Below the pieces are notes generated by a model. It saw nothing but the letters and a program-made list of their open reading frames with translations, was not told where the DNA came from and ran no database searches. 64,000 nt of DNA from a virus, in the IMG/VR virus record IMGVR_UViG_3300042465_007707, positions 1-64,000 of that record. One strand, 5' to 3'. A program made the translations under genes and the position numbers. This document shows positions 26,268 through 49,645 of this stretch, piece by piece (the first letter of the stretch is position 1; each line of letters begins with the position of its first letter).

Positions 26268-26268
26268 C

Positions 26269-27212: not shown

Positions 27213-27234
27213 TACTTATTTTTTTTAACTTTTC

Positions 27235-27270
27235 AAAAAAAAAGGTAGGTAGCATTAACCACCTACCTTT
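27235..27270 (-). terminator. Strong rho-independent terminator
   Basis: Minus-strand AGGTAGGT...ACCTACCT hairpin followed by nine T, 25 bp after the capsid-like gene. Isolates that gene as a separate transcription unit. Confidence 0.85.
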
Positions 27271-27295
27271 CAGGGTATCTAAAAACTCAGATTAA

Positions 27296-30205: not shown

Positions 30206-30233
30206 AAGGGAGTTTTTTTAACTCCCTTTTTTT
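30206..30233 (+). terminator. Rho-independent terminator between convergent genes
   Basis: AAGGGAGTT / AACTCCCTT stem (9 bp, five-T loop) followed by T-run to 30233. It touches the stop of the minus-strand gene at 30232 and may work both ways. Confidence 0.85.
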
Positions 30234-31212
30234 ATAATTCTTTAAAATCTAATCCGTCAAATGAATTGTAAACATCTTCATCTGTAACATCGCTAAAATC
30301 TACTTTACTTACTACTTTTTCTTTAATTGAAATTTTTTTAGAAGTAGTTTCTCCAACTAAATCAAATAAAGGGTTTATTGACTCTTGCATAATTATTATT
30401 TTTTCTATTGTTTTTGGAGCTATTATTTCTTCAAATTTTTCTTGATTTATTTCCGACATATCAATTCTACTATAATAAAACCACATTCTAACAGATTCAA
30501 GTGCTTTCATATTATAGTTTATAGCATTTATAGGGCTTGGAATAAATTTCGTATCAATGCCTTCAATTGCAAGTTGATTTTGCATAGGATCAACTCTAGG
30601 TCTATTAAAATCAACTGAAACTACTCCTGTAGCTAACTTTGTTGTTTTCTTCAACCGCTGCATAGCTTGAACCTGAGTATTAGCATACACATTAACCGTA
30701 TTAATTATATACGGTTGAGATTGAAGTTCATTAAGCAACTCCGAATAAGATATATTTGTTCCTGTTGATACAACTACTGTTGTTCCTGATATAGCTATCC
30801 ATGGATTTCCAGCAGGATAAGATACATTAGGCGTTAAAGACGAAAATATAGTTGGAACAAATGTTGGATTTATAATCCTAATTATTAAAGTATAATTTGG
30901 AGAAATTCCATTTGGAGCATAAGAAAAAAAAGCGTATCCTAAACCTGTGAATAAAAACGCATTAAGGTCAGCTATTAACAAGTCAATTGTAGCTAATAAA
31001 GGAGAGGTGAAATAATTATTAGGAACGCCCCCTAAAGTGTAGTCTAATTTAAATTGATTAACTAAGGTAAAAGGAAAATTAATTCGATAATAAGTCGTTG
31101 TGTTGCTCGAAGAACTACCACTTAATCCGCCCGAAAATAAATTTATCTCACTATCGGCATTGGCAATGTTAGTTAATTCTAATGATATTAATTCGCTTTC
31201 TGGATTCTTCAT
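30232..31212 (-). CDS. Capsid-like structural protein related to the 220-aa protein, 326 aa
   Basis: Start placed at MKNPESEL (31212), since the longer frame adds an improbable hydrophobic leader. N-terminal half is an all-beta domain (YYRINFPFTLVNQFKLDYTL; ISPNYTLIIRIINP). The C-terminal half aligns with 27296-27958: SYSELLNELQSQPY and RPRVDPMQNQLAIEGID versus NPRLDPMQNQAGVSIV. The extra domain makes it the size of a double jelly-roll capsid or penton protein. C-terminal tail (DVYNSFDGLDF) is acidic. Role as second capsid or vertex protein is inference. Confidence 0.55.
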   Translation of the reverse strand: MKNPESELISLELTNIANADSEINLFSGGLSGSSSSNTTTYYRINFPFTLVNQFKLDYTLGGVPNNYFTSPLLATIDLLIADLNAFLFTGLGYAFFSYAPNGISPNYTLIIRIINPTFVPTIFSSLTPNVSYPAGNPWIAISGTTVVVSTGTNISYSELLNELQSQPYIINTVNVYANTQVQAMQRLKKTTKLATGVVSVDFNRPRVDPMQNQLAIEGIDTKFIPSPINAINYNMKALESVRMWFYYSRIDMSEINQEKFEEIIAPKTIEKIIIMQESINPLFDLVGETTSKKISIKEKVVSKVDFSDVTDEDVYNSFDGLDFKEL

Positions 31213-31250
31213 AATTGCAAATATAATTGTTTTTAAATAAATTATAAAAT

Positions 31251-31281
31251 AAAAAAAGCTTACCCAATGTACGGGCAAGCT
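31251..31281 (-). terminator. Rho-independent terminator
   Basis: Minus-strand AAGCTTGCCC / GGGTAAGCTT hairpin followed by T7, downstream of 31306-31488. Confidence 0.8.
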
Positions 31282-31999: not shown

Positions 32000-34060
32000 C
32001 TACCAATTAAGGAATTTTAATCCCCAACCTGAAGCATTTTTGCCTATTTCTCCACCGTCTTTAAATTGAGGTTTACCTTTAGTCTTAACAATTGCATATT
32101 TACCTTTTGAATCATTTTTATACTCAATGTAAGTGCTTTGTTCTGGGTAAGATTTTTTTATTTCTTTTTGTTTGTATTCAATTGCCATAGGTAAATTATC
32201 AACCTCAGATTCATAAATTTTCCCTAGAATTTCTCCACCGTCTTCGAATTTATCTTCTTTGCTCATATCACCTCTATTCAAACGATTCTCGTAATAGACA
32301 GACCCATCTGCCGAAACTCTTTTTCCTAAAGGTAGGGCTTCACGTTTTCTGTCTGAAGATTCGCTTCTTTTGTGACCTTTACTTGGTTCGTTGCTTGGTG
32401 TTGCACCTTTTTTAGCTTTCAATTTAGCAACTAGCTTTTTGTGGTCTGCTTTTGCTGGTTTATTTTTTTGTTTGTAAGATTCTGAAAGTTTATTTCTTTC
32501 ATTTAAAGCCATTTTATTCCATTCCGATTCTGTCAAGTCAAAGAATTTAATAACTTTTAAATCATCACCAACAACTTTGCTTTTAATACCAGTTTTAACA
32601 ACCACTTTTTTAGCAACAGCCTTTTTGATTGGTGCTTTTCTAGTTGTTGGTTTTTTAGTTGTTGCTGTAGCTTTTTTAAATAAAGCCAATTCTTTTTCGT
32701 CACGTTTTCTTTGAGTTTCAGAAATAGTTTTATCTTTTAGACTAGCTTCTAAATTTTTAACTTTAGCTCCAACGTAATCTTCAGCCTTAAATCTTTCGTA
32801 TTTTTCGATTGATCCAAAACCATATATCTTATTTTTGTTTTTATTAGCTAATTCTTTTGCGCTTTTTTCTGCATTTGCTAATGTTGAATGTTTAGATATA
32901 ATTTCGTATGTAGCATCTTCATATACAACGTATTCATCTTTATGTTCTTCTTTTTCCTCTGCTTTAGTTTCCTTGCTTTCGTGTAATTGCTTTTTTAACT
33001 TTTCTATTTCATCTTTTGCTTTATCTTTAGCAAATTGAGGAAAATCTCCATCTATAACAGCTTGTAAATCTTCAATTTTTGATTGGATTTCTCCACCACC
33101 TTCGTATTGACCTTCTCTAATATGTTTTTGTAAAGAAAGTTTTACATATCTTGGTAAATTAACATATTTTGTTTCAACTATTTTATCATTATCAACAAAC
33201 CTAAATCCAATTTCTGCACCTTTAGAACCTTGTATTCTTTTTGTTGTTTTTATTTTTTCATTATAAAATTCTTCATCAAATCCTATTTCGTTAACGTGGT
33301 CTGATAAAAAATGATATTTTTGGTCTAAATTCCAACTATTATCCCAAATATCCCCCTCGTATCTGTTTTTATATTGATTTTCAATACTACCACCACCTTC
33401 AAAAAACCCAAAACGTTTCTTTTTAGCAACAGGAGTTTCTGAAAAGCTAATTACTTCATAAGGTTCAACAAATCTCTCTCCGTCATCTGTGCCAACTATA
33501 TAGCTGCTACCTTTTTTCTCTCTTATAATTCCACTTCTCGGAGTTCCGTAGTCACCTTTAAAGCTTATTGTGTTACCTATTTCACCACCTACAGCAAACA
33601 TTCTCTCGTCTTTATATCCTTTTCTCATTGGTTTATCTTTTGCGTATCTTGTTTCGTAATCTTCACTTTTATTTACATATCTTTTTTCAATAACGTTTCC
33701 GCCTTTTGAAAACATTTTAGATTCTCCGTCTTTTTTGTCGCTTATAGAATCAATATATTTTATAATTGTACTTCTAATTGCACCATCTTTTGGATTTTTT
33801 GATCTATACTCCCATTTTCTATCGTAACGACCAACACTTGAATTTTCATTATAAATATTCAAATAATAAATAGAACCTTTATTTATTCCGTCAGTTCCAT
33901 TATTATCTGTTTCAGCTGTAAAAGTATAGTCACCTAAATTACCTTCGTATGAATGAAAAACCCTATTAGGTTCGTCTTTTCTAGCTCGAAATTCATTTTT
34001 AGTTATGTTAACTTTCATTTTATCATCACCAACACCGCCACCGTTATCTTGTTTTGTCAT
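32000..34060 (-). CDS. Modular 'polyvalent-type' protein with GG motifs, 686 aa
   Basis: Made of short domains separated by the motif [FY]-x-x-G-G-x-[IVL]: FSKGGNV, FAVGGEI, FEGGGSI, YEGGGEI, FEDGGEI and FKDGGEI. A Lys/Ala-rich basic segment lies near 470-560. The C-terminus is SGWGLKFLNW, shared with the 136-aa protein. No catalytic motif is clear. The architecture matches phage polyvalent proteins (Iyer et al. class), large chains thought to enter the host with the DNA and counter defences. The GG sites could be cleavage points. Confidence 0.55.
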   Translation of the reverse strand: MTKQDNGGGVGDDKMKVNITKNEFRARKDEPNRVFHSYEGNLGDYTFTAETDNNGTDGINKGSIYYLNIYNENSSVGRYDRKWEYRSKNPKDGAIRSTIIKYIDSISDKKDGESKMFSKGGNVIEKRYVNKSEDYETRYAKDKPMRKGYKDERMFAVGGEIGNTISFKGDYGTPRSGIIREKKGSSYIVGTDDGERFVEPYEVISFSETPVAKKKRFGFFEGGGSIENQYKNRYEGDIWDNSWNLDQKYHFLSDHVNEIGFDEEFYNEKIKTTKRIQGSKGAEIGFRFVDNDKIVETKYVNLPRYVKLSLQKHIREGQYEGGGEIQSKIEDLQAVIDGDFPQFAKDKAKDEIEKLKKQLHESKETKAEEKEEHKDEYVVYEDATYEIISKHSTLANAEKSAKELANKNKNKIYGFGSIEKYERFKAEDYVGAKVKNLEASLKDKTISETQRKRDEKELALFKKATATTKKPTTRKAPIKKAVAKKVVVKTGIKSKVVGDDLKVIKFFDLTESEWNKMALNERNKLSESYKQKNKPAKADHKKLVAKLKAKKGATPSNEPSKGHKRSESSDRKREALPLGKRVSADGSVYYENRLNRGDMSKEDKFEDGGEILGKIYESEVDNLPMAIEYKQKEIKKSYPEQSTYIEYKNDSKGKYAIVKTKGKPQFKDGGEIGKNASGWGLKFLNW

Positions 34061-34116
34061 TTTTTCAATATTTTGTTTGTAAAGTTAATTGTTTTGTAAT
34101 GATTTATAAAATCAAA

Positions 34117-34150
34117 AATAATAGGTAGCTTTGAATAGCTACCTATTATT
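34117..34150 (-). terminator. Rho-independent terminator
   Basis: Minus-strand AATAGGTAGCT / AGCTACCTATT hairpin followed by ATTATTTTT; ends the transcript of 34155-45481 genes before the 686-aa gene. Confidence 0.75.
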
Positions 34151-34154
34151 TATT

Positions 34155-34499
34155 TTAAACTAAAGTTAAAATCATTTGCAAACCTCTTATTTGTTTTTCA
34201 ACGATAGCTTTTTGTTCATCTTCTAACATAGGCACTAAAAGTTTTAAACCTCTAATCTGTTTTTCAACAATAGATTTTTGAGATTCATTTGATCCTTCAG
34301 TAATAACCTTTTCTACATTTTGATTTTGATATTTTTCAACTTTTTCTTTTATCTCAATAAATATAGGTTCTCTTTCCGATAAATACTTTAATTCTGGATC
34401 GGTTAAAATTTCTGTCTTAATGAAATTAGAAAATTGTTCTGGCAGTTTAGAGTAATCTAAATTTCTAAAATACGACTCTACTATAGTATATTTACTCAT
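34155..34499 (-). CDS. Protein with QIRGL C-terminal repeats, 114 aa
   Basis: N-terminal helical domain, then two copies of VEKQIRGL-x-LL (KSIVEKQIRGLKLLVPML; KAIVEKQIRGLQMILTLV). The same tandem ends the 770-aa protein at 43169-45481 (TQVRGLELLVPML; IEKQIRGLKLLINIV). Two proteins from one operon therefore share a C-terminal tag of about 40 residues, possibly an oligomerisation or virion-loading module. Function unknown. Confidence 0.6.
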   Translation of the reverse strand: MSKYTIVESYFRNLDYSKLPEQFSNFIKTEILTDPELKYLSEREPIFIEIKEKVEKYQNQNVEKVITEGSNESQKSIVEKQIRGLKLLVPMLEDEQKAIVEKQIRGLQMILTLV

Positions 34500-34500: not shown

Positions 34501-37500
34501 TTATATAAGTTTTGCTAATTGAATTAGTTTCTGTTTTATTCTAGCTACTTTATTAGGCTCTGATATATTTTCATAATTTCTATCATTAGGAATTTCCATA
34601 CCACCTTTTTCAAGTACATTGTAATCTCTAGTTGAAGCATCTATGACCATATATCCATCAACAACATTTTTAAGCTCGTCTAGGGCTTCTTTGCCTTTTG
34701 AAAAGAAATCATCAATAACTGACACAGGGACAAACCTTCCAGTTTTTTGATACCTTGAAAGCATCCTTTCTTTAACTTCTTTATAAGGAACTTTATCCAT
34801 ATAAACTATAAATACTTTGTAACCTAACCTTTTTAAAGTGCCTATTAATGGTAAATAGTTTTTAGTGCTATTCATTGTGCCATCATAGATCATATCAAAT
34901 TGACAAGGAACTCCGATTTCTTTATCTGTAAGTAAAGTATTAATTATATCCTTCGTTTCTAAATGTGTAGAGTTTGCGTTCCAACCTTTATACTCAGGTA
35001 ATTTAGCTCTAACTTCATCAGCATCTATTTTAAATATAGCATCGTTCAACAAATAAGGTGCATAAGTTTTAAGGAAACTTGATTTACCAGAAGCAGGGCT
35101 ACCACCTGTTAAAATAGCTATTGGCTGTTCATCTTTTAAACAATTAATTTGCTCTTTTAATTCGTTAATTATTTCGTAATGTAATAATTTTCTTTCTTCC
35201 GTATAATCTCCGTTAATATCAATGTGCATTGATTTTGTTTGCGGTAAAGATTCAACACACTCTGTAAGTTTCTTTATAGAATCGTCATCTATTTTACGAA
35301 CCCCTTCTCCGTCCAATAATTCACAACTTTCATAAACTAATTTTTCTTTTTTAGGTTCTTTTAATCGTTTAATACTTAATAAATAGTTAAGTCTTTCAAA
35401 TTCCTTTACTAAAGTAGGTACGCTTTTTAATTCATATTTATTTTTTTCCCTATCTAATATAATTTCTTCAGTCCTTTTACCTACATATTCTGGAGAAGCT
35501 AAAAATTTAACTTCTTCACTTAAAGCAATAACCTTTTGTTTACTTTCGTCTATGTAAGAATCAATTCTTTCTACTTTTATGCTACGAGGATTTAAAAGGT
35601 CTTTATTTTCTTTTTCTACAAGCCTTTTACTTTCTATAGAATAATCTAACCAATAAGGTCTAAAAGGTCTTTGAACATTTGAAATATCCTCTTGTTTGAA
35701 TTTTTTAAGTATTTCGTCCATAGCATATCTTCTATCATAATCAGTTATTATTATCTTACCAAAATCATCTTTTGGATATTCTGACTTAAAGAAAGTAATT
35801 AAGAAATTAACCTTTTGAATAATATCTAAATCTTTTTTTGAAGGTGCTATTTGAGTTAGTAATTCATCAATTTCATCTTTATAGCGACTTAATGTATCTA
35901 AACTTGATTTATATGCAATTAACCTATCTTGAACACTTTTTAATGAATTTATATCATCTTGAATTTTAGTGTTTTTAACCTCAATCTCAAATAAAGCAAT
36001 AACTTTTGGGTCTTTTATAAGTGCATATTTTATTTCTTGTGGATCAATTTCCTCAATTTTTAATACACTTTTACCATCGTTGCTCCAAATACTGTTTATT
36101 CTAGCTGTTTTTTCTTCTAATTTCTGGAACATAAATATATCAATACTATCAATCATTAATGGATTGACAATACGAACATTCATAAACTCATTTTGTTGAC
36201 GCCAAATTCTACCTTGTAACTGAATCATATCAGTAGGATTCCAATCTAAAAAACAATTGTATAAACAAGTTGATTTTTTTTGTAGGTTAATGCCTTCCTT
36301 TATAGAACTTGAACCTAGTAAAATTTTCATTCTCTGAGAATCACTAATATTTTCGTATTCTTTGGTTTTTTCATCATACCTTCTACCTAAAAAAGAATCC
36401 TGAGATATTCTTTTTTTATCGACACTCATTTTAGCAGTTATTTGTCCTACTTCGTGTTTTTCAAAACCAATTTCGTTAATAAGATAATCAATTATAAGAT
36501 TAAAGTATTTTAAACCACGATCCATATAAATAACCTGACCTGACATTGGCTCGTTATGTTCTTCATGGTATTTTTTAATTGATCTAATACACTCCATTAC
36601 ATATTTAAGCTTAGGGCTTGTGTTTATGTAATCTAAATATGTTGGCTCTCCTAAATCATTGTATTCATATAAATAAGGGCTTAAAGCTATGTTTCTAGCA
36701 AAATTCATGCTTCTTAATGCACGAACTCCCGATTTTTCTTTATCGGTTAAACTATCATCGTCTATTGTATCTTCATCAGATGAATCATTTAATTTTTCAG
36801 AATCTATATCGTCTGCGTTAGAATGTTTTATCAAACCTAGTTCAATTTTGCCTTCTGCGTAACTAACTACATCAGACATGAATCTTTTTTGAGCAAAAGA
36901 CATTTCTATATTACAAGTAACTTCCTCCTCTTTTGATAATCTAACTACTTCATTGTTCACTAATTTTTTAGTAAATGGAATAACTATTTTATTAGGTCGA
37001 ATAACCCCAATATCATCACCCTCTTTATAGTTGAAATATCTTAATATTATTTTTTGCAGCGAAGGTAAATTATTGAACCCTTTAACGATTTCTTTATATT
37101 GTGGCTGTAATTTATGATTTACAATTAATTCACTATTTACATCAATATAATTATCAAAAAAGTCTGTTATATTTTTTAACCCTAAACTATCTAATTGATT
37201 ATAAGCAACCATTGATAGCATACTAAACACTTCCAAAGGTGAATTTGTAAATGGTGTTGCAGTCAACATTAATACATTTCTGTTTTTATTGTTTTTCAGA
37301 ATATATTGGCTAATCATAAAACCTTTCAATGCAGTATCTGAAGGGCTACCAGATTGTATTTTATATTGTTGTTTTGCTTTTTTTCCAGAAGATTCAGCTT
37401 CACCTTTTACGGATGTAAAAACTTTTTTCAAGGCGTGAGCTTCATCAAAACAAACAAAATCTAATCCAAGTGCTTCTATTTCTACATTAGTCCCTTTAAG

Positions 37501-39543
37501 TCCTTTACCTATTAATGTTTCTAACTTGCTGTAAAAACTTGCTTTTTTCTTTTCAGACATCATTTCATCTGCACCACCTTGATTCAATATTTCATAAAGT
37601 TCAGTCAAAAGTTCATTTTCAGTTTTTTGACTAAATCCTAATTTTGCAAAACCTTCGTAAGTTAATACAGTAATTGAACCCTCATCAAGTTTTCTTACAT
37701 TATTATTTTCATCTAAAATTTCATCAGAATAATCAACACCTAAATTAAATAATCCATTTATTTTTCTATGTGGTAGTAATCCTTTTATCTCTGATAACCA
37801 TTGTTTATAGGTTTGATTAGGCACTACTACAAAAGGTCTTTTTGAATATCCAGCAATAATAAATTGCTCCATAACCATAATAGCTGACATTGTTTTACCT
37901 ACACCCACATCGTATGCTAAACATCCACTACCTTCATTGAAAATGAAAGATACAGCTTCTCTTTTTTCTGGCTTAATAATAAACGGCTGTTCGTCATAAA
38001 AACTTTCTGTTATATTAAAAGCTACTGGAATTTTTAAAAAATCTGGCTTTAAATAGTTATTAAACTGCGAGTTCCATTGTGTTTCAATAGTAACTTTTTG
38101 CGATAAAGACAATTCTTCTTTAAGAAATAAAGAAAATAAACGATTACCTTCTTCTGTTGCTTTGGCTTTTGTTCGTGCAATTTGAGCCTTCCATTTTTCA
38201 ACTTCTGAATCGTTTAAATAAGAAGGTGCTTGTTTAGACCTTTTTTCAATGTAATAGTATATTATATCATTATATGATAAATTTCCCTTAATATCTAATT
38301 TATTTCTATTGATAGCAAGCCACAAACAATAGGCATCTGTTAAAGATAATTTATTAAATGTAGTTTGTTGGTAGCTTCTACCTTCTAATTTATAAAAATC
38401 TGGTTTCCCTTTATTTTCTGCTTTTCCAATTTCCCACCATTTAAAAACGTCAATAGAATTAGTATTTTCTATAAAATTATTTTTAGCAAATTTTGAAATT
38501 GGTTTTAGAATCAAAGATTTTGCATCATCGTTTCCTGTAATCGTTAATCTATTATCATAAACTTTTTGAAAAGAATTATTTAAAACAACTAACTGATTTT
38601 TTAATACATCTTCACCATAGGTTTTAGTAATAAAATCAATATCTTGACCAGAATTTTCTCCACCTTTAACTATCTTGCTTATTTTCTCGTAAATATCACC
38701 ACTTGCATAAAGTGGTAATGGTAAATAACTTCCTTTATAGTAAAACAAAATACCTTCATTTACCCAGTCTTTTAGCTTTTCTTCTATTGATCTTGTGTCC
38801 TCACCATATTTAGCCATTAAATACCAATCTTCAGAAAGCTCTTGACCTATACTTTCTTTGTAGTATATATATGCTTTTAATTCCTCGTTGGATATATTTT
38901 CATTTAGGGCTTGATATACCTGTTGATATGTTTGTAATTTAGCAACAGGAGCTTCGTAATCCTCGTTAAGACTTTCTTCTTTTTTAACTTTTTTAGCGAC
39001 AGCCTTTTTACCTATATCATTATTTGATCTTTCAATAATTTTAATTAAAAATTGTTCATTTTCAACCTTTAATATCTCTTGAGAAATCGTCATTTTAATA
39101 TCACTAACTCCGATATTAATATTTTTAATAAATTGGTCGAAATCGTCTGGTGCATCAATATTAGTTAATACTGTTATATCTCCAGTTAAAACTTGAATTT
39201 CTTTACCATATCTGCTTTTGTCAATTTTTATATTACCTAAAAGTTTCGTGTTATTTTTTTTATACCAATTACCACCGTATAAGTCCTCAATAGAATTATC
39301 TTCTTTATCAATAATATTAATTTCTTCTTCATCAATAACATCAATTTCTTTTTGTTCTGGGTATTTACCCAATATAAAATCTATTGCTTTTTGAAGGTAT
39401 TGTTTATCTTCTTCAGATGCTGTTTCTATGCTTTCTCTAAACTCTTGAAGTTCGGATTTTACATCATCGGGCATTAAGATTCCACCGCCATTGAATTTTT
39501 TTATAGCGTGTTGAATATTTTTTGGAGAAATGTTATCTATCAT
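34501..39543 (-). CDS. Giant SNF2-type helicase fused to zeta-toxin kinase, 1680 aa
   Basis: Polyvalent-type protein. FNGGGIL near the N-terminus; an SF2/SNF2 ATPase with DVGVGKTMS (Walker A, about 541-549), FDEAHALKK (Walker B, about 697), MLTATPF (motif III) and QLQGRIWRQ (motif VI, about 1110); a coiled-coil region (about 1170-1440); and a C-terminal zeta-toxin/P-loop kinase with TGGSPASGKSSF (about 1480) and KIDADEVRAKLPEY. Similar helicases occur in phage P1 DarB-type anti-restriction proteins. The zeta domain phosphorylates UDP-GlcNAc in toxin families. Overlaps the next gene by 4 bp. Likely delivered with phage DNA to protect it (inference). Confidence 0.75.
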   Translation of the reverse strand: MIDNISPKNIQHAIKKFNGGGILMPDDVKSELQEFRESIETASEEDKQYLQKAIDFILGKYPEQKEIDVIDEEEINIIDKEDNSIEDLYGGNWYKKNNTKLLGNIKIDKSRYGKEIQVLTGDITVLTNIDAPDDFDQFIKNINIGVSDIKMTISQEILKVENEQFLIKIIERSNNDIGKKAVAKKVKKEESLNEDYEAPVAKLQTYQQVYQALNENISNEELKAYIYYKESIGQELSEDWYLMAKYGEDTRSIEEKLKDWVNEGILFYYKGSYLPLPLYASGDIYEKISKIVKGGENSGQDIDFITKTYGEDVLKNQLVVLNNSFQKVYDNRLTITGNDDAKSLILKPISKFAKNNFIENTNSIDVFKWWEIGKAENKGKPDFYKLEGRSYQQTTFNKLSLTDAYCLWLAINRNKLDIKGNLSYNDIIYYYIEKRSKQAPSYLNDSEVEKWKAQIARTKAKATEEGNRLFSLFLKEELSLSQKVTIETQWNSQFNNYLKPDFLKIPVAFNITESFYDEQPFIIKPEKREAVSFIFNEGSGCLAYDVGVGKTMSAIMVMEQFIIAGYSKRPFVVVPNQTYKQWLSEIKGLLPHRKINGLFNLGVDYSDEILDENNNVRKLDEGSITVLTYEGFAKLGFSQKTENELLTELYEILNQGGADEMMSEKKKASFYSKLETLIGKGLKGTNVEIEALGLDFVCFDEAHALKKVFTSVKGEAESSGKKAKQQYKIQSGSPSDTALKGFMISQYILKNNKNRNVLMLTATPFTNSPLEVFSMLSMVAYNQLDSLGLKNITDFFDNYIDVNSELIVNHKLQPQYKEIVKGFNNLPSLQKIILRYFNYKEGDDIGVIRPNKIVIPFTKKLVNNEVVRLSKEEEVTCNIEMSFAQKRFMSDVVSYAEGKIELGLIKHSNADDIDSEKLNDSSDEDTIDDDSLTDKEKSGVRALRSMNFARNIALSPYLYEYNDLGEPTYLDYINTSPKLKYVMECIRSIKKYHEEHNEPMSGQVIYMDRGLKYFNLIIDYLINEIGFEKHEVGQITAKMSVDKKRISQDSFLGRRYDEKTKEYENISDSQRMKILLGSSSIKEGINLQKKSTCLYNCFLDWNPTDMIQLQGRIWRQQNEFMNVRIVNPLMIDSIDIFMFQKLEEKTARINSIWSNDGKSVLKIEEIDPQEIKYALIKDPKVIALFEIEVKNTKIQDDINSLKSVQDRLIAYKSSLDTLSRYKDEIDELLTQIAPSKKDLDIIQKVNFLITFFKSEYPKDDFGKIIITDYDRRYAMDEILKKFKQEDISNVQRPFRPYWLDYSIESKRLVEKENKDLLNPRSIKVERIDSYIDESKQKVIALSEEVKFLASPEYVGKRTEEIILDREKNKYELKSVPTLVKEFERLNYLLSIKRLKEPKKEKLVYESCELLDGEGVRKIDDDSIKKLTECVESLPQTKSMHIDINGDYTEERKLLHYEIINELKEQINCLKDEQPIAILTGGSPASGKSSFLKTYAPYLLNDAIFKIDADEVRAKLPEYKGWNANSTHLETKDIINTLLTDKEIGVPCQFDMIYDGTMNSTKNYLPLIGTLKRLGYKVFIVYMDKVPYKEVKERMLSRYQKTGRFVPVSVIDDFFSKGKEALDELKNVVDGYMVIDASTRDYNVLEKGGMEIPNDRNYENISEPNKVARIKQKLIQLAKLI

Positions 39544-41699
39544 AGGTATTTTATTGCTTTTTTAAGACTTTCTATAAGTTTATCGGGCTTGTCAGTATAT
39601 TTACCTGCCTTTTCTAAAATGTCTATCCTTTTTTGTAGTTTTTCTTTTTCTGAACTAATTTCCAAAGGTAACACATTTTTATCAAATTTTTCTTTTATGT
39701 TAATTGATTTAATTACGGATTCGTCTGTTTCTTTAACGAAAATAGTATCGAATATCTCGTCTGGAGTTAAATTATTTCCAAATAAACCTGATCCGCTATT
39801 TTCGTCCACACCCTTATTATATTTTAACAAAGCATTTTTAAAGGAGTTAGCTTTTTGATTTAAAAACCAATTTATTATAATTGCCTTTTCAGTTTTTAAG
39901 TCCTCATCGTCCTCAAATATACTTTGTTCTGTAACGTATTGCTTAACCGACTTATAGTTGTTTAAAACCATTTGATTTTGAATAAGCATAGCTTTGTTAA
40001 GATCCTCTATTAAACTACCTTCCTTAAATGATTTATTTTTAATTAAAGGTATAATAGCATTAACAACATTTTTAGTTACCGACTTGATACCTTCATTTTG
40101 GCTTATTTCAATAGCATCTGAATTTAAAACAAGACTTACCAAAATAGTTTCGTAAAAAACCTTTCCATTTTCAGTTAGAGAAGTATCAGTAAACAGATTT
40201 GATATTTCATTTTCTGTTATTATTCCACATTCTAAAATTGTTTTTTTAAACCTATTTACGGCATTTCTATCATTGTATAGTTCACTAACTATATCTTGTT
40301 CTGAAATAATTGAAATTAAAGCATTTCTACACCCTTCATTATCTTTTATTTGTTGAGATAGTCTAATACCTAAATCTATTTGTCTTTCAGACTTTGCTGT
40401 AGATTTATTATACCTATTTAGTTCTGAAGTTACATAGGAGTTAAAATCAAGATCAAACCTAACTAAAACTGGTTGTTTAAATTTAGCATAAACTTGCTCC
40501 ATATTAATTCCATACCCACCATATTTTAATTCATTATATAGTGTTTTAACGTATGAATCATAATTTTGTTTATAGTTTTTTGTTGCTAACTTTAAACTCA
40601 TTACCCTATTATTACCACTTACTACAATACCATCTATTGTAATTATAGGAGTTCCATTAGCTGTAGGGCTTGTAGTTATTATAATTTCTGGAGTTAATTT
40701 TTCTGCTACCGAAATAACTTTAGCTTGTGCGTTTTTATCACCAGAATAATTCCTATCGTTCACATTCCTTCCTTTATCATCAGTAGGGTAATTTTCAGAA
40801 TTACCAAAAGTTTGTTCGTTATGAGATGCTATTATATTTTCTAATTCAACAACAGCAAAAATAGATTTGTTCTTTTTATTATCAGGAAAAACAAGCTCTC
40901 TTTCTCTACCTAAAACTATATTCGTTTCTAAAAAGTTTTTTCTATATCCTATTTTAAAAAATCCTTCGTTTTTTAATTTCGATATGTTTATTTCAGTTAA
41001 AAGATCAATGTTTGAAACGTTATTTTCTTCTATTGGTTCTGTTGGTTTAAAATCTAATTTTGATTCAATATCTTTTATTTCTGGTATTTTTTCTTCGTCA
41101 AAAACAAAAGTTGTTAAAGGTTTTGCTTGGTATCTATCTTCTTTATAGTCTATATTATTTTTAAGCCAAGATTCTTTTGAATTTAATTTAACAGCATAAT
41201 ATAACTCTTTGAAATTAGTAACAGCACCTATTTTTGTATCTGTTTTTCCTTTGTATAAATTCTTATTTTTCCAATTATCTTCGTTTATGACACCATTTAA
41301 TATTTTAAAATAATCAATGTTATCTCTACCTATTATTCCGTCAAAAGAAAAATTATTACTTTTTAATTCTTTTTTTTCATTATAATAAACCCATAAATCA
41401 AAAAATGATTGTTGGTTTTTGCTATATTCACATTTTTGCAGTTCAGATGCAATTTTAGATATTAAATCTTCTAAACTTTTTTCTTTTGTTGAACCAGCAT
41501 ATCTTACATAAGTTTCTATATTACAACCGAAATTATCAATTTTCCACTTTATAAATTCCTCACCCATTAAATCGGGCGTTTTTATTCTCGAATTATAAGA
41601 ACCTTTGTCATAGCCAGAGGTCATTCTATTATAGCTTACGCCAAATTTATTTATTAAAATTTCGGCTTCTTTTTTCCAATAATCGTAATCTTTATACAT
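39540..41699 (-). CDS. DdrB-like ParB-superfamily polyvalent protein, 719 aa
   Basis: The middle of the protein contains ITIDGIVVSGNNRVMSLKLA (about 355-375), the G-N-x-R motif of the DdrB/ParB-like domain, which in P1 Ddr/Dar proteins lies beside helicase and methylase domains. N-terminal part is a helical module; C-terminal part is helical and acidic. Sits between the giant helicase and the methyltransferase, coupled by ATGA overlap to the former. Probably a defence-avoidance component. Confidence 0.55.
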   Translation of the reverse strand: MYKDYDYWKKEAEILINKFGVSYNRMTSGYDKGSYNSRIKTPDLMGEEFIKWKIDNFGCNIETYVRYAGSTKEKSLEDLISKIASELQKCEYSKNQQSFFDLWVYYNEKKELKSNNFSFDGIIGRDNIDYFKILNGVINEDNWKNKNLYKGKTDTKIGAVTNFKELYYAVKLNSKESWLKNNIDYKEDRYQAKPLTTFVFDEEKIPEIKDIESKLDFKPTEPIEENNVSNIDLLTEINISKLKNEGFFKIGYRKNFLETNIVLGRERELVFPDNKKNKSIFAVVELENIIASHNEQTFGNSENYPTDDKGRNVNDRNYSGDKNAQAKVISVAEKLTPEIIITTSPTANGTPIITIDGIVVSGNNRVMSLKLATKNYKQNYDSYVKTLYNELKYGGYGINMEQVYAKFKQPVLVRFDLDFNSYVTSELNRYNKSTAKSERQIDLGIRLSQQIKDNEGCRNALISIISEQDIVSELYNDRNAVNRFKKTILECGIITENEISNLFTDTSLTENGKVFYETILVSLVLNSDAIEISQNEGIKSVTKNVVNAIIPLIKNKSFKEGSLIEDLNKAMLIQNQMVLNNYKSVKQYVTEQSIFEDDEDLKTEKAIIINWFLNQKANSFKNALLKYNKGVDENSGSGLFGNNLTPDEIFDTIFVKETDESVIKSINIKEKFDKNVLPLEISSEKEKLQKRIDILEKAGKYTDKPDKLIESLKKAIKYL

Positions 41700-41701
41700 T
41701 A

Positions 41702-41920
41702 TTAATCAATATTATTAACTGAATAAAGTCTTTCAACTTCTACTATTGCTTCCGAAATATTGATTTTCCTTGACAAAATCGTTTCAGCTATTGTTTGTAA
41801 TAAAGCATTTCTCAATTCAATATTAGAGTAGTTGTAACAAACTACAGGAGTAACAGATGAATCGCAAAATTCTAACTCTGTTTGAATCTGAATGTAAAGT
41901 TTTTCTAGTAAATTTTCCAT
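41702..41920 (-). CDS. Hypothetical protein, 72 aa
   Basis: Small helical protein (LLEKLYIQIQTELEFCDSS; AETILSRKINISEAIVEVER) with no known motif, 2-3 bp from each neighbour within the polyvalent operon. Possible partner or regulator of the adjacent methyltransferase. Confidence 0.55.
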   Translation of the reverse strand: MENLLEKLYIQIQTELEFCDSSVTPVVCYNYSNIELRNALLQTIAETILSRKINISEAIVEVERLYSVNNID

Positions 41921-41923
41921 TTT

Positions 41924-43156
41924 TTATCTTTTTTTAAATACAACAATTTCAGACGATACGCCAGTTCTTTCAAATATATTAATAGGTAATCTGTAGGCAT
42001 CTATTAAATCAGCTTTTTCAAATATAATTTCTTTAACCTTTGATAATGGCGAATCTAAAAATAATGATCCACCATTATATTGTTCAGCACCTACAATGTA
42101 TATTAAAAGTCCACCTTGAACTAATAAATCTAATCCCCTTGTAATAAAATACTCAGTAAAGTTACCTGCTTTAGTAAAAGAATCCTCTCCCATAGCTATA
42201 TATTTAGAATCTAGTTTACCATAAGGCGGATTTCCTATAACTAACGAATATTTATCTAAATTTTCAGTTTTGTTTTTAATTGTCATATTGCCTTTTAAGA
42301 AGTTTTGCTCAAAATATTTTAGTTCTACTTTAGCGTTTGGATATAGTATTTCACAAATTTTAACTGAGTATTCATTGATTTCATTTGCTACCAACTTAAC
42401 GTCTTTAGGCGCATATTTTAAAAAAGCACCTATACCAACTGAAGGCTCAAAAACAGAATTGTCTGCTATCGTTCCATATCCATATTTATAAGCCAAAGCC
42501 CACATTTTTTTTACAACTGCATCAGGAGTATAAAATTCATACATTAACCCTTTCATTCGTTCTATTCCTATTTCACCAAACTTTTCAAGTCCACCATATC
42601 CAGAATAATAAGATATAAACTCTAGTTCATCATTAGAATAGTTGTCGCTATCTCCTTTTTGTTCTAAAAGCCTTTCGATTGCTTTATTTATTTCATACGG
42701 ATTTTTATAGCTTTCAATATCAGTTTTAATTTCTGGTATTAATTCTTCTTCAATATCTTCTTCTTCATCAATATCTTCACCAATTATTTTAGATAATTTT
42801 TTTGGATCAAAATAAAAATCTAATTCTGTATAATTTTTAAGTTCCTCAATATCTATATAACCTAATTCAGCATCTTCCATATCTCCATTTAGAATAGTGA
42901 ATCCAAACGCTTGTAATTGTTCTTCCTCAATATCTTTCTCTAATATGTACCAATCACTAGACGAACTGAAGTAATGTAAATAAGCTATTTTTTGTAATTT
43001 CGGTATTCCGTCCGTTTCGTATGTTTTCGGCATAGTAGTAATAGTTGTGTATAAATCATCTATTACTTCATTATAGCTATCTAAATTGCTTTTAACTACT
43101 TCATATTGCCCTTTTCCGAAAAACGGCTTTACAACCTTTAATTTATCTATTTCCAT
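41924..43156 (-). CDS. N6-adenine DNA methyltransferase, 410 aa
   Basis: SAM-dependent methyltransferase. YEFYTPDAVVKKMW (about 213) leads into VFEPSVGIGAFL (motif I, about 236-247), then VIGNPPYGK (motif IV NPPY, about 305), GGLLIYIVGAEQYN and FERTGVSSEIVVF. The N-terminal 200 residues are acidic and less conserved. It resembles the methylase part of P1 DarB, here as a separate gene beside the helicase. Likely modifies phage or incoming DNA against restriction. Confidence 0.8.
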   Translation of the reverse strand: MEIDKLKVVKPFFGKGQYEVVKSNLDSYNEVIDDLYTTITTMPKTYETDGIPKLQKIAYLHYFSSSSDWYILEKDIEEEQLQAFGFTILNGDMEDAELGYIDIEELKNYTELDFYFDPKKLSKIIGEDIDEEEDIEEELIPEIKTDIESYKNPYEINKAIERLLEQKGDSDNYSNDELEFISYYSGYGGLEKFGEIGIERMKGLMYEFYTPDAVVKKMWALAYKYGYGTIADNSVFEPSVGIGAFLKYAPKDVKLVANEINEYSVKICEILYPNAKVELKYFEQNFLKGNMTIKNKTENLDKYSLVIGNPPYGKLDSKYIAMGEDSFTKAGNFTEYFITRGLDLLVQGGLLIYIVGAEQYNGGSLFLDSPLSKVKEIIFEKADLIDAYRLPINIFERTGVSSEIVVFKKR

Positions 43157-43168: not shown

Positions 43169-45481
43169 TTATACAATGTTAATCAAAAGTTTTAACCCTC
43201 GTATCTGTTTTTCTATAATATTTTTTTGATCCCCTTCAAGCATAGGTACTAACAATTCTAAACCACGAACCTGAGTTTCTAAAATTGATTCTTCGCTTTC
43301 TTGTTCTATTGTTTCGTGTTTTAAAGCTTTTTCAAACTCATCAATACTTTTCTTTTCTGTTTTTTTATCCCTTCCATCAATAGAACCTAAAGAATAAGCT
43401 TCAATTGATTTAGCCCCATTAAAATCTGGAACATAACCAAATTGATACGCTGTGTTTTCATATCCTTTTGTGTAAAAATCGTATAGTTCAACTATATCTT
43501 CATTTTCCTTTTCCATTTTAGCTAGATCCTCGTAATATTCTGGATTCTCCTTAATATGTGTTTTTGCCGTTTCAACAACTGCTTGTTCTGGTGTTAATTT
43601 ACGTTCAGCTACCTTTTTTAATGTAGCCAAATGTTCCATTTCGTGTTCAGTTCCTTTTGCTAGTTCTCCACCACCTTTGAATTTTTTAGTTTTAATATAT
43701 TCTTTTGCGTCTTCAATGTAAGTTTCTATTTCATCAATTACACTATCAAAAGAATCATCACCACTAAAATATATTTGAGGTCTATTTTGTTGAAACCTTC
43801 CCCTTGTAGCATCTTTATTTGCTATAACAACCGATAAGCTCCTATCTATACCATAAGGTAGATTAGATTCATTTTGTGAATGATCCGCAATCCTTAATTG
43901 AATAGAACCTATTGAATCATTTTCTTCGTTTGTATCGTCCTCTGAATAAACATCAATAGTGTTATACTTATAATTTCCGAATTTATTTTTAGCCCACTCT
44001 TGAACTTCATCTAATAAATCTTCTGAACTGGAATTAATAGCTGAAACAACTCTATTTTCAATGTTTTCAAATTCTCCTTCTTCAGTTAATTCATAGTAAT
44101 AAGAATCATCATAATATTCTTCAATTGGATAATCGTCTATACTTTCTTCCTCATCTAATTCATAAATAAATTTATATTTATCAATCTTTTTTTCTAATGA
44201 AACGCTAAATTCACTATCTCCAAAATCACCAATAGTAGCCCCTTCGTATTCACTTTTAGCATCTTCGTAACTCATTGTTACAAGTTTAATTTCAGAATCA
44301 TCGTCCGTATCAAATCTAACTTGGTAAAGTTCTAATTCAACTTCGTCACCAATTCCACCACCACCTTTGAATTTCTTCTCTGAATTAGGCATCCTTTTCA
44401 TTGAATAAAAATCGCTATTTACTACAAATCCAAATTTACTATAATAGTTGATTAGATATTCCTTCGTAATTTTAGATTTCTTTTCTTCGTTGTCTAAAAA
44501 GTAAGTGTGTTTAGGGCTTGGTTCTAAATAAATAGTAACCTTAAACTCGTCTGCTTTATCAACTATTTTTTGTAAATATTTTTTAGCATCAATTGATTGA
44601 TTTTTTTTCTCAAAAACATCTAAAATAACAACATTATTTTCTTTGTAAGGTTGGATTTCATTTGGCAAAGAAAAAGAAATATTCATTTCATCTGAAATCG
44701 GCTTATACCAATCAATAAACCATTTACTAAATGATTGTACACCTTGTATTCCACCACCACCTTCAAATTTTTTAGTAGGTTTGTGTCCCCAGATTAATAG
44801 GGCTGTATGTTTTCTAGTTTTACGACCTTTATCATCGTAAAGCTCACCTTTCATACCACTCATTCGCTTGATAAATGATATTTGCTTTTTAGCCCAACGC
44901 CACATATCAGAACTCCATAGTTTATATGGTATATCCTTCATTTTCATTAGCCACCTTGCGGATTCTCTACCTGAATCAATACCTTGCTTGTTCGCTTCAG
45001 ATTCACTCAATCCTGCTTGTTTTCCTTCTGGTGAATTATAGAAATTTGTTATCTCAGATTTACTCATATTTACAAGTGACTTCCACTCGGCATAAGTTTC
45101 AGCATCTAATTTTTTGCCTTCTGGTGTGTTGTAAAAAGCTTTTAGCTCAGATGGTGTCATGTTGGATATATTACCACCTTGTATATATTTAGCCAGAATT
45201 TCAGCTTCTTCATCACCAATAGCAACACCATTTCCTTCCATTTGATTTAATGTAGAAAGTATTTCTTTTGGCGTTCCTTTTACGGTTAAAACCTTGTCAG
45301 ATTGAACGGTCTTTTTGTTTATTATAACCTCGTTCCCTTCAAGTTCTACAGGAGTACCACCTTGGTCGGTTACAATAGCTTTAATACCACCTAGTGAATT
45401 GCCCTCTGAATCGTAATGTGCTTTGCCTTTCAGCATACCGCCTTTTGATCCATTATTAGTTTCGAAAAATCTTTTAGCCAT
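43169..45481 (-). CDS. Modular polyvalent-type protein with GG motifs and QIRGL tag, 770 aa
   Basis: N-terminal domain GGMLKGKAHYDSEGNSLGG and VELEGNEVIINKK, typical of Bacteroidetes phage head-associated 'GG' proteins, then MSGMKGELYDDKGRKTRKHT (DUF5872-like impression). Modules are divided by IQGGNI, FEGGGGI, FKGGGGI and FKGGGEL. The C-terminus carries the QIRGL tandem tag also found at 34155-34499. First gene of the 11-kb operon, with promoter TAAATTTG at 45499-45506. Function unknown; injected defence-evasion protein is plausible. Confidence 0.55.
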   Translation of the reverse strand: MAKRFFETNNGSKGGMLKGKAHYDSEGNSLGGIKAIVTDQGGTPVELEGNEVIINKKTVQSDKVLTVKGTPKEILSTLNQMEGNGVAIGDEEAEILAKYIQGGNISNMTPSELKAFYNTPEGKKLDAETYAEWKSLVNMSKSEITNFYNSPEGKQAGLSESEANKQGIDSGRESARWLMKMKDIPYKLWSSDMWRWAKKQISFIKRMSGMKGELYDDKGRKTRKHTALLIWGHKPTKKFEGGGGIQGVQSFSKWFIDWYKPISDEMNISFSLPNEIQPYKENNVVILDVFEKKNQSIDAKKYLQKIVDKADEFKVTIYLEPSPKHTYFLDNEEKKSKITKEYLINYYSKFGFVVNSDFYSMKRMPNSEKKFKGGGGIGDEVELELYQVRFDTDDDSEIKLVTMSYEDAKSEYEGATIGDFGDSEFSVSLEKKIDKYKFIYELDEEESIDDYPIEEYYDDSYYYELTEEGEFENIENRVVSAINSSSEDLLDEVQEWAKNKFGNYKYNTIDVYSEDDTNEENDSIGSIQLRIADHSQNESNLPYGIDRSLSVVIANKDATRGRFQQNRPQIYFSGDDSFDSVIDEIETYIEDAKEYIKTKKFKGGGELAKGTEHEMEHLATLKKVAERKLTPEQAVVETAKTHIKENPEYYEDLAKMEKENEDIVELYDFYTKGYENTAYQFGYVPDFNGAKSIEAYSLGSIDGRDKKTEKKSIDEFEKALKHETIEQESEESILETQVRGLELLVPMLEGDQKNIIEKQIRGLKLLINIV

Positions 45482-47762: not shown

Positions 47763-48656
47763 TTATTTTTTTATTTGTTTTGAATCAGGATTACCATAAA
47801 AATCTCTCATATACGTTGCAATTATGTGTTTTACAGCTACTGATCTGTCTTTATGAACTAGATTACCAGTATGAATATCACGCTTTTTAACTTCTTTTTC
47901 AATGATTGAATAATTATCCGTTAAATAGTCCTCAACGGCTTTTTGAAATTCAGCACGAGAAAAATTTCCTTTAACTTTTTTCATGTCTTTATCAACGAAT
48001 AAAAAGAAACGTTCGTCACCACCTCTATATTTGTTTTCAACTAATTTTTCAGCTAAATGCAAGTGAGTAACATCTGTTCCGAATTTATTTTCGTGTTTTT
48101 TTACAGTATCTTCAGTTTTATGAATCCTTAACCAATTACAATTAGCCCACAACTTAGGGTGCGCCATTTTTCCAACTGACTGAAAGTGCAAAATAATATC
48201 ACAACTTTTATGTCTTTGAGTACAAATAGCTCCAATTAAATCACTTGGTAATGAATCTGAAAGGAACTTAGTAATATCCTCAATAAGTAATAAACCATTT
48301 TTAAAGTTCTCCAGAATAACACCTAAAGCATCAGCAGTTTCTTTTAAAGTCATTTGACCACCACCTTCTTTTAAAATAGTTACCCTTCTAGCTTCTACTA
48401 TACCATTGTGACACCATTTACCTATATCCGATAAACGGATAGCTCTAATATGTGCAAAGTTTGGGTTTTGATCCGACTGAACATTTCCAAATTCATTATT
48501 TACATCTAAAATAAGAACCTTTCTAGGCTTTGCTCCTATACTTGTATTTCCTCTTAAAGTTGGTTGCATCATAGCGAGAGTAGAGTAGGATTTACCCACT
48601 CCCTTCATTCCTATTGCAATTCCTAATTGTGCTTCCCTATATTTAATTTCTGCCAT
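47763..48656 (-). CDS. FtsK/HerA/Zot-type ATPase, candidate genome-packaging motor, 297 aa
   Basis: P-loop ATPase with GMKGVGKSYS near residue 20 (Walker A), GLLLIEDIT near 122 (Walker B), ICTQRHKSCDIILHFQSV (sensor-like Gln), and no helicase or terminase nuclease domain. The same compact layout is used by packaging ATPases of PRD1-like phages and by Zot of filamentous phages. Start ATG 48656 preferred to a TTG at 48662. Located by the DnaA-like and GRKPK proteins. With no terminase in the window, it is the best motor candidate. Confidence 0.6.
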   Translation of the reverse strand: MAEIKYREAQLGIAIGMKGVGKSYSTLAMMQPTLRGNTSIGAKPRKVLILDVNNEFGNVQSDQNPNFAHIRAIRLSDIGKWCHNGIVEARRVTILKEGGGQMTLKETADALGVILENFKNGLLLIEDITKFLSDSLPSDLIGAICTQRHKSCDIILHFQSVGKMAHPKLWANCNWLRIHKTEDTVKKHENKFGTDVTHLHLAEKLVENKYRGGDERFFLFVDKDMKKVKGNFSRAEFQKAVEDYLTDNYSIIEKEVKKRDIHTGNLVHKDRSVAVKHIIATYMRDFYGNPDSKQIKK

Positions 48657-48658
48657 AA

Positions 48659-49645
48659 TCAATCCTCCATCATTTGTGCTTCAATATCTTCAACTGACAT
48701 TTTAGCTGTTGCTACTTTCATTTCTACTACATTATTTTCTTCTTTTGGTTTCGACTCAATTGAATCAGGAGTATATGTTTGAACAGGCGGTTGAATAACT
48801 ATTTCAGCTCTATTGTTAGCTGTTGCTGTTGCAAAATGTTTTAACATTTGATTTCCTTGTTTTTTCATTCCGATAATAACTACCATTTTCATAGCTAAAT
48901 CTTTTCCAAACATTCCCAATAAATACTGTTCATCGGTAACACCCCATCCTTTTTTCTGAAATACACGAATCATAGCAGGCTTAACTTTTTCACCAAATTC
49001 AGGATCATAAGTTAAAGCTTCAGTTACTTGCTGGTTGTGTGTTTGAGCATATTCAACAGCATTAACATCTGAACCGTCCTCGGAAATTGGAACTCTTAAC
49101 TCGGAATCAATTTCACCATTTATAATTTTTTCGTAAATTTTAGCTTCATCAATCTTAGCAACTTTCGCCCCTAATTCATGAATCATAGCGTACCCTTCAA
49201 GAACAGAATTAACCAATTGCGTAGCTGCCATTTTTTTATCCTTGTTATCTAAATCAGACATTGCAGGATTAGTAACATTATCAAATGCACTTGGTTCTTT
49301 TGGTTGTTCTACTTCAGGAGCTTCCTCTTCCTTAAAATCTTCAAACGTAAGGTTTTGATCTCCAAAATCAGGTTCTTCTATATCTCCAATTTCTGAAATT
49401 ACTTCAGTTTTATTATAAATACGTTCTATTACAGGTTCATTAATAGGGCTATATTCAAAACTTGGCACTTCAAAATCATCTACTTTTTCACTCATTATCG
49501 GTTCTATTTTTGGTTCAACTATATTTTCTTTAATTTCTTCTACTTCTACCTTTTCAATTGTTGGTACTTCTCTTTTTTTTACAACTCTTTTAGCGATTAA
49601 GTTACCCTCTTTAGGTTTTCTGCCTCTTGTCTTTATTTCTGTCAT
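48659..49645 (-). CDS. Protein with AT-hook-like N-terminus, 328 aa
   Basis: Starts with TRGRKPKEGN, an AT-hook-like DNA-binding patch, then an acidic Glu/Pro linker (about 20-110) and a helical folded C-terminal domain (MAATQLVNSVLEGYAMIHEL; QVTEALTYDPEFGEKVKPAM; YLLGMFGKDLAMKMVVIIGM). Unknown family. Coupled to the ATPase by a 3-bp gap, so it may be its DNA-recognition partner in packaging. Confidence 0.55.
   Translation of the reverse strand: MTEIKTRGRKPKEGNLIAKRVVKKREVPTIEKVEVEEIKENIVEPKIEPIMSEKVDDFEVPSFEYSPINEPVIERIYNKTEVISEIGDIEEPDFGDQNLTFEDFKEEEAPEVEQPKEPSAFDNVTNPAMSDLDNKDKKMAATQLVNSVLEGYAMIHELGAKVAKIDEAKIYEKIINGEIDSELRVPISEDGSDVNAVEYAQTHNQQVTEALTYDPEFGEKVKPAMIRVFQKKGWGVTDEQYLLGMFGKDLAMKMVVIIGMKKQGNQMLKHFATATANNRAEIVIQPPVQTYTPDSIESKPKEENNVVEMKVATAKMSVEDIEAQMMED

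What the first reader, a model, noticed from the sequence alone, without database searches (positions are those of the whole stretch)
34501..43156. Split DarB-like anti-defence operon: SNF2 helicase-zeta kinase fusion, DdrB/ParB-like protein and N6-adenine methylase
In phage P1, helicase and methylase domains lie in one virion-borne DarB protein. Here they occur as neighbouring genes, with the helicase (1680 aa) ending in an intact zeta-toxin kinase domain (TGGSPASGKSS) and a DdrB-like GNNR protein between. The zeta kinase on an injected protein could attack the host cell wall precursor pool or a defence system.
Basis: partly seen in the sequence, partly recalled or inferred. Interest (0 to 1): 0.78.

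Follow-up and report, generated by a model that had tools for sequence, protein, structure and literature searches.

The report
Split DarB-type phage cargo operon
A virus of Bacteroidota-type bacteria carries a set of four enzyme domains (DNA methylase, DNA-tracking motor, DdrB-like protein and a toxin-family kinase) that most likely travels with its DNA to protect it from host defences; the parts are known, but the way they are split, fused and tagged here is new.

Summary
On the minus strand, window 34501-43156 encodes an N6-adenine methylase (410 aa), a small ORF, a DdrB-ParB protein (719 aa) and an SNF2 ATPase ending in an intact zeta-family kinase (1680 aa). They belong to a tight six-gene operon, 45481 to 34155, followed by a strong terminator. 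The closest known kind is the DarB/DdrB "polyvalent protein" class (Iyer 2017), which already includes all four domains. New here: (1) one clade keeps the methylase apart from the helicase and fuses, or as here splits, DdrB, SNF2 and zeta; collinear relatives show domain-boundary fission and fusion. (2) The same four domains recur, differently split, in tailed phages (TerL-portal-[MTase-SNF2]-DdrB-zeta). (3) The split clade sits in a virus lineage with a HerA/TrwB-like ATPase, a beta-sandwich capsid candidate and an HExxH peptidase; terminase and portal models gave no match, so it is probably not a tailed phage. (4) Adjacent cargo proteins in three of these viruses share virus-specific C-terminal tags. 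Delivery in virions and anti-restriction are inferred from phage P1; the kinase's target is unknown. New variant of a known kind.

The parts
41924..43156 (-). N6-adenine methylase gene, 410 aa; GYGG (LPD36-like GxGG motif) at residue 186, EFYTP 207, EPSVGIGAF 237, NPPY 309-312
   Evidence: Pfam Eco57I 2.9e-9, N6_Mtase 3.7e-8; PHROG 1685/11801/10089; motifs
41702..41920 (-). 72-aa ORF between methylase and DdrB, conserved in G001 (77 aa)
   Evidence: blastp E 2.4e-4
39540..41699 (-). DdrB-like protein, 719 aa; DdrB-ParB domain about 40458-40880, GNNR at residue 362
   Evidence: Pfam ddrB-ParB 1.7e-16; fused to SNF2-zeta in G001, G002 and G005
34501..39543 (-). SNF2 ATPase + zeta kinase fusion, 1680 aa; overlaps the ddrB gene by 4 nt (ATGA)
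36004..38112 (-). SNF2/helicase core (residues 478-1180)
34642..35163 (-). Zeta/PezT-family kinase domain (residues 1461-1634)
   Evidence: Pfam Zeta_toxin 2.8e-19; family profile vs PDB: PezT 1.6e-14, zeta 7.4e-12, Pnkp1 1.3e-9
34155..34499 (-). 114-aa protein 1 nt after the helicase; its C-terminus carries the tag shared with the 770-aa protein
43169..45481 (-). First gene of the operon, 770 aa, polyvalent-like; GG-motif linkers; C-terminal tag; homologous to part of the G001 1579-aa protein, which carries ART-PolyVal and GNAT domains
43172..43279 (-). C-terminal tag of the 770-aa protein (last 36 aa)
   Evidence: alignment score 124 to the 114-aa protein; null 99.9% = 37, maximum 48 of 8133
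34158..34265 (-). C-terminal tag of the 114-aa protein (last 36 aa)
34116..34151 (-). Terminator-like 15-bp stem with T tail, closing the operon
32000..34060 (-). Next gene downstream, 686 aa, with 6 distinct GG-motif linkers; possibly further cargo
47763..48662 (-). HerA/TrwB-like ATPase (putative packaging ATPase)
   Evidence: DUF87 0.0017; G001 homologue TrwB_AAD_bind 2.9e-4, both below Pfam cut-offs; found in 25 viral loci
27296..27958 (-). Beta-sandwich capsid candidate, 220 aa
   Evidence: AF2 mean pLDDT 80, pTM 0.78 for the trimmed core; conserved with the ATPase
30232..31278 (-). Paralogue of the capsid candidate
   Evidence: profile match
23142..23891 (-). Putative zincin peptidase, HEFSH at 175 and E.EADLNAL at 189
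   Evidence: no Pfam family matched

Best explanation
This is a DarB/DdrB-type polyvalent cargo operon of a probably non-tailed Bacteroidota virus. Most likely mechanism: the proteins are made late, sorted into the particle and enter the next host with the DNA (inferred). There the separate methylase and the SNF2 motor act together, as the fused halves of DarB do, the motor moving along the incoming duplex while DNA is methylated or restriction complexes are displaced, protecting it from restriction (inferred from P1 DarB). DdrB promotes loading of the SNF2 protein into the particle, as P1 DdrB aids DarB addition to the capsid, and may act as an NTPase or nuclease (inferred). The zeta kinase rides on the motor and phosphorylates a small host substrate: a nucleotide sugar is the family precedent, another nucleotide or an RNA end the alternative (inferred). 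Shown here: domains, intact motifs, operon layout, domain-boundary fission and fusion, recurrence of the same four-domain set in tailed phages, and shared terminal tags on neighbouring cargo genes.
For: Domains and motifs. Operon: intergenic gaps of 12, 3, 2, -4 and 1 nt, then a terminator. Fission/fusion: MTase | DdrB-SNF2-zeta fused in G001 (L002/L016), G002 (L017) and G005 (L054); all separate in G013 (L132); DdrB split from SNF2-zeta here; SNF2-zeta again in the Flavobacteriales contig L139. The same four domains in tailed phages L027, L028, L029, L032, L060, L078 as [MTase-SNF2] - DdrB - zeta; in L027 TerL and portal stand upstream. DdrB with zeta: 8 of 9 DdrB loci versus 1 of 38 without, Fisher 2.5e-7 at 85% dereplication. 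Polyvalent-type neighbours in relatives: ART-PolyVal, GNAT and RelA_SpoT domains. P1 DarB and DdrB are virion proteins, DdrB 'aids DarB addition to capsid' and the DarB N-terminal 30 aa direct a reporter to the capsid (PMC9024508). Shared C-terminal tags on neighbouring cargo genes in the window, G013 and G017, and a shared N-terminus between the DarB-like and zeta proteins of L033 and L037.
Against: No virion proteomics or activity data exist for this virus. In the window the tag is on the 770-aa and 114-aa proteins, not demonstrably on the SNF2-zeta, DdrB or methylase proteins. The cargo is accessory: helicase in 1 of 21 further ATPase-lineage records, zeta in 3 of 21 (many are fragments). 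The DdrB-zeta association is not independent of descent: 4 of 6 independent pairs agree and 0 disagree, sign-test p 0.125, and 85% dereplication hides some DdrB-without-zeta tailed phages (L034, L035, L038, L055). The methylase is short, and no separate target-recognition domain was identified.
Confidence: 0.6

Rival explanations
1. The operon is expressed in the infected cell but not packaged: the methylase and SNF2 protein modify or remodel progeny DNA, and DdrB and zeta act as intracellular take-over or superinfection-exclusion factors.
For: No direct packaging evidence; the virus also carries RecT and SbcC-like genes, so it does encode intracellular DNA enzymes; zeta occurs without the helicase in G017 and G021.
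Against: Homologous P1 proteins are virion components; in the tailed phage L027 the same set lies just after the terminase and portal genes; neighbouring cargo proteins share terminal tags.
Confidence: 0.22
2. The zeta-type domain is not a cell-wall toxin but a nucleic-acid end kinase or other small-molecule kinase that helps repair or disarm defences, for instance by re-phosphorylating cleaved RNA or DNA ends. (This concerns the kinase step only and is compatible with the best explanation for the rest.)
For: The single-sequence PDB search finds a bacterial Pnkp first (1.2e-4) and the family profile also finds Pnkp1, tRNA-Sec kinase and T4 Pnk; the PezT/zeta 'EGT' motif is 'DGT' in all 11 aligned cargo domains; it is fused to a DNA motor.
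Against: The profile is nearest to PezT (1.6e-14) and zeta (7.4e-12); Pfam Zeta_toxin is the best family.
Confidence: 0.3
3. The zeta domain is a toxin-antitoxin or prophage-maintenance module, and its fusion to the SNF2 protein is incidental.
For: Zeta domains are classical TA toxins; a member of the ATPase lineage appears integrated in a Fluviicola contig.
Against: No epsilon-like or PezA-like antitoxin was recognised in the operon; the domain recurs with DdrB and DarB in unrelated viruses.
Confidence: 0.08

Closest known systems
Phage P1 DarB (Dar antirestriction system)
   Same: Gamma-class N6-adenine methylase plus SNF2-type ATPase of the same PHROG family; sits with a DdrB-like gene.
   Different: P1 has methylase and helicase in one 251-kDa protein and no zeta domain was found described for it in the passages read; here the methylase is a separate gene and the SNF2 protein ends in a zeta kinase; the virus has no detected terminase or portal.
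Phage P1 DdrB / DdrB-ParB domain (PF18763)
   Same: ParB/Srx-type domain with the GNNR motif.
   Different: No C-terminal metallopeptidase domain was found on the 719-aa protein; an HExxH protein is encoded apart at 23142-23891; in three relatives DdrB is fused to SNF2-zeta.
Polyvalent proteins (Iyer et al. 2017, PMC5512222)
   Same: All four domain types are listed there, including zeta kinases and the methylase-helicase dyad; ART, GNAT and RelA_SpoT neighbours as in that class.
   Different: Zeta was reported there from Verrucomicrobium and proteobacterial conjugative elements and on MuF proteins; the DdrB-SNF2-zeta fusion, the C-terminal tags and the HerA-ATPase virus context are not in the sections read.
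PezT / zeta toxins (PF06414)
   Same: Walker A, Asp and Arg motifs conserved; nearest solved structures by profile.
   Different: Part of a virus SNF2 protein, no antitoxin recognised, 'DGT' instead of 'EGT'.
Leptospira phage LE1 putative methylase (CAE14681.1)
   Same: Best annotated-phage match to the helicase (30% identity, pieces within residues 253-1179).
   Different: Annotated as one 'putative methylase' gene in a tailed phage; the match stops before the zeta domain.

Membership tests
DarB-like methylase-helicase dyad | Gamma-class N6-adenine methylase with TP motif and NPP(Y/F) | tested here: met
   EFYTP 207, NPPY 309-312; Pfam N6_Mtase and Eco57I
DarB-like methylase-helicase dyad | LPD36 GxG[GAS] motif N-terminal to the methylase | tested here: met
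   GYGG at residue 186; motif match only, no LPD36 profile was run
DarB-like methylase-helicase dyad | SWI2/SNF2 ATPase fused C-terminal to the methylase | tested here: not met
   SNF2 present but in another gene, with DdrB between; so 'DarB-like module', not a DarB protein
DarB-like methylase-helicase dyad | Protein in the virion head and protection of DNA from restriction | not testable with these tools
   needs virions and plating assays
DdrB-like ParB domain | DdrB-ParB profile with the conserved active-site Arg | tested here: met
   PF18763 1.7e-16, over cut-off; GNNR
Polyvalent proteins | Two or more domains of disparate activity in one polypeptide | tested here: met
   SNF2 + zeta here; DdrB + SNF2 + zeta in G001, G002, G005
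Polyvalent proteins | Zincin metallopeptidase domain in the same protein (the commonest hub domain, not obligatory) | tested here: not met
   no peptidase domain in the three genes; a separate HEFSH protein lies at 23142-23891
Zeta/PezT kinase | Walker A, Asp before LPEY, RY..GR segment | tested here: met
   alignment of relatives and profile vs PDB
Zeta/PezT kinase | Phosphorylates UDP-N-acetyl amino sugars and is neutralised by a cognate antitoxin | not testable with these tools
   no antitoxin recognised nearby; activity needs an assay
Tailed phage (Caudoviricetes) | Large terminase and portal | tested here: not met
   PF17289 and PF04860 absent from G000, G001, G002, G005, G013, G022, G028 but found in the tailed control G006; PF03354 found in none, G006 included; record may be incomplete
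Tailless jelly-roll virus (Varidnaviria-like) | Jelly-roll capsid protein plus FtsK/HerA-type packaging ATPase | tested here: inconclusive
   ATPase weakly HerA/TrwB-like, below cut-offs; beta-sandwich model pLDDT 80, PDB matches all E > 0.001, among them PRD1 P5 and satellite-virus coats

The most novel reading that the evidence does not exclude
A lineage of roughly 50-100 kb non-tailed, membrane-protein-rich viruses of Bacteroidota (HerA-like ATPase, paired beta-sandwich capsid candidates, trans-encoded HExxH peptidase, sometimes inverted terminal repeats) delivers DarB/DdrB/zeta polyvalent cargo. Each virus marks its cargo with its own short C-terminal tag, and the long cargo proteins may be cut at GG-motif linkers by the separate peptidase, replacing the built-in metallopeptidase of classical polyvalent proteins.
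Probability: 0.25. Interest if true: 0.8.

Novelty: new variant of a known kind. Interest (0 to 1): 0.5.

Why it matters
It shows the DarB dyad working as separable parts that are reshuffled together with DdrB and a zeta-family kinase in two very different virus types, arguing that these four activities form one functional set. It supplies natural fused and split versions for testing which contacts matter, and candidate C-terminal sorting tags for loading proteins into particles. If the viruses are tailless, DarB-type anti-restriction cargo is not confined to tailed phages and plasmids, and the question of how such particles deliver large proteins becomes open to experiment.

Tried and rejected
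Helicase scan with a single protein or the two-row alignment gave only G001; the three-row core alignment gave 78 loci. ATPase scan with one sequence gave nothing; the five-row alignment gave 25 viral loci. The 249-aa conserved protein 23142-23891 was first suspected to be a capsid protein and rejected when HEFSH was seen. First fold model of 27296-27958 was poor (pLDDT 61); the trimmed model was good but had no decisive fold match. An N-terminal tag shared by DarB, DdrB and zeta in tailed phages was looked for: only L033 and L037 scored clearly. Programmed frameshifting joining ddrB and helicase was considered and dropped: the 4-nt ATGA overlap fits ordinary coupled translation. A PDB search with the methylase found nothing. 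PADLOC and NCBIfam gave only partial helicase and methylase similarities to defence proteins, far below NCBIfam cut-offs. End repeats of G000: none found. Literature searches for GG-motif processing, zeta polyvalent proteins and this virus lineage gave nothing specific in the titles and abstracts listed.

Full report
OBSERVATION. The window is nearly all of a 64,176-bp virus record, 30% GC. The methylase and helicase match different parts of the same 'DarB-like antirestriction' PHROG. Key motifs are intact in all three proteins.

ANATOMY. The genes form a tight minus-strand series: 770 aa (43169-45481), methylase, 72 aa, DdrB, SNF2-zeta and 114 aa (34155-34499), with gaps of 12, 3, 2, -4 and 1 nt, followed by a 15-bp terminator-like stem at 34151-34116. 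The ddrB stop and helicase start overlap as ATGA. The next gene, 686 aa at 32000-34060, follows the terminator.

RELATIVES. G001 (IMGVR_UViG_3300042868_006184, 63,287 bp) has a 1202-aa protein ending in the methylase, a 77-aa ORF, and a 2136-aa protein in which DdrB, SNF2 and zeta are one chain. Thus the window's DdrB and SNF2-zeta genes are collinear with one fused relative. A scan with the helicase core gave 78 loci. Domain maps show: nearly all have methylase and helicase fused; G001, G002 and G005 have the methylase separate and DdrB-SNF2-zeta fused; tailed phages such as L027 have [methylase-SNF2], DdrB and zeta as three consecutive genes, with terminase and portal upstream in L027. In G013 all four are separate. 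A tree of 50 helicase cores puts the window, G001, G002, G005, G013, L018 and L022 in one group (SH-aLRT 100); parsimony needs two changes between fused and split methylase-helicase (quick method). DdrB and zeta occur together more than expected in 47 dereplicated loci (p 2.5e-7), but a test that respects descent has too few pairs (4 agree, 0 disagree, p 0.125), and some tailed relatives have DdrB without zeta.

VIRUS TYPE. Models for terminase (PF17289) and portal (PF04860) found nothing in seven records of this lineage, and found both in the tailed control; PF03354 was silent everywhere, the control included. No terminase, portal or HK97 capsid family was reported for the large window ORFs scanned with PHROGs. 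Instead the window shares with 25 viral loci an ATPase resembling HerA/TrwB (weakly, below cut-offs), and most of those loci also hold a beta-sandwich protein and an HExxH protein nearby. The beta-sandwich core is predicted with pLDDT 80, but no PDB match passes E 0.001; PRD1 vertex protein and satellite-virus coats are among the best. Many small proteins have one membrane-type hydrophobic segment and share such tails. G001 ends in a perfect 127-bp inverted repeat, which fits terminal repeats but could also reflect assembly, since 127 is a common k-mer size. Records in genome assemblies are mostly Bacteroidota, including a Fluviicola isolate contig where the virus genes lie next to apparent host genes. 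A non-tailed virus is therefore likely but unproven.

TAGS AND LINKERS. In three viruses, neighbouring cargo genes end alike: window 770 aa and 114 aa (score 124), G013 DdrB and helicase (105), and three consecutive G017 genes ending ...YL.MFLGK (91, 64, 47); random internal windows give 37 at the 99.9% level and a maximum of 48. The tags differ between viruses. In two tailed phages the DarB-like and zeta proteins instead share an N-terminal segment (score 91). Long cargo proteins of the lineage are also rich in a [FYM]..GG.[IVLM] motif: 6 distinct sites in the 686-aa protein against 0.26 expected, and many in the G001 1127-aa protein. Sorting by tags and cutting at linkers are hypotheses; recombination between cassettes is another explanation for shared ends.

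FUNCTION. P1 DarB and DdrB are virion proteins, DdrB aids DarB addition, and the DarB N-terminus directs cargo to the head (PMC9024508). The polyvalent-protein paper describes the methylase-helicase dyad, DdrB-ParB and zeta kinases and proposes injection with the DNA (PMC5512222). By analogy this operon most likely protects incoming DNA from restriction, with DdrB helping assembly and the kinase acting on a small host substrate. The profile of 11 cargo kinases is nearest to PezT and zeta toxins, then Pnkp1 and tRNA-Sec kinase; the 'DGT' motif in place of 'EGT' leaves the substrate open. Steps shown: domains, motifs, order, fission and fusion, co-occurrence, tags. Steps inferred: packaging, injection, anti-restriction, kinase target.

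LIMITS. All relatives are metagenomic or draft records, many incomplete; the scans depend on short peptide patterns; the tree is a quick one; absence from flanks of 10 kb is not absence from the virus. In the window itself the tag is not on the SNF2-zeta or DdrB protein.

Noticed in passing
window 23142-23891, 27296-27958, 30232-31278, 47763-48662; loci L103-L127: A lineage of mostly 50-100 kb viruses sharing a HerA/TrwB-like ATPase, beta-sandwich capsid candidates and an HExxH peptidase; no match to the capsid candidate or the ATPase in 50,697 GenBank phage records.
   Followed up: partly
L004:1-127 and the end of L006 (ends of G001): Perfect 127-bp inverted terminal repeat on the 63,287-bp contig; none found on the window's record.
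   Followed up: partly
L133:9420-13885: Three consecutive G017 genes, one with a zeta domain, all end in a near-identical ...YL.MFLGK tag.
   Followed up: partly
window 32000-34060 and 43169-45481; L002:15164-18547: Recurrent [FYM]..GG.[IVLM] linkers spaced along large proteins, far above shuffled expectation.
   Followed up: partly
L005:6814-15223 and window 18054-27958: N-terminal YSNA/DGDYSN or DPYSYAGG-like repeats in putative structural proteins, and single membrane-type segments shared between small proteins.
   Followed up: no
L136 (NZ_VLPL01000008.1) and L135 (CP034120.1): The ATPase and a capsid-like gene sit in a Fluviicola contig and a Glaciecola-labelled chromosome next to similar apparent host genes; suggests integration.
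   Followed up: partly
window 7853-8320, 4435-4980, 28348-29064, 51013-51738: Phage lysozyme (1.2e-31), a weak C92 papain-like amidase match, a glycosyltransferase-like gene conserved in G001, and a metal-dependent hydrolase.
   Followed up: no
L002:67-4806 and L002:15164-18547; L054:14375-16675: Further polyvalent-type domains in relatives: ART-PolyVal, GNAT and RelA_SpoT.
   Followed up: partly
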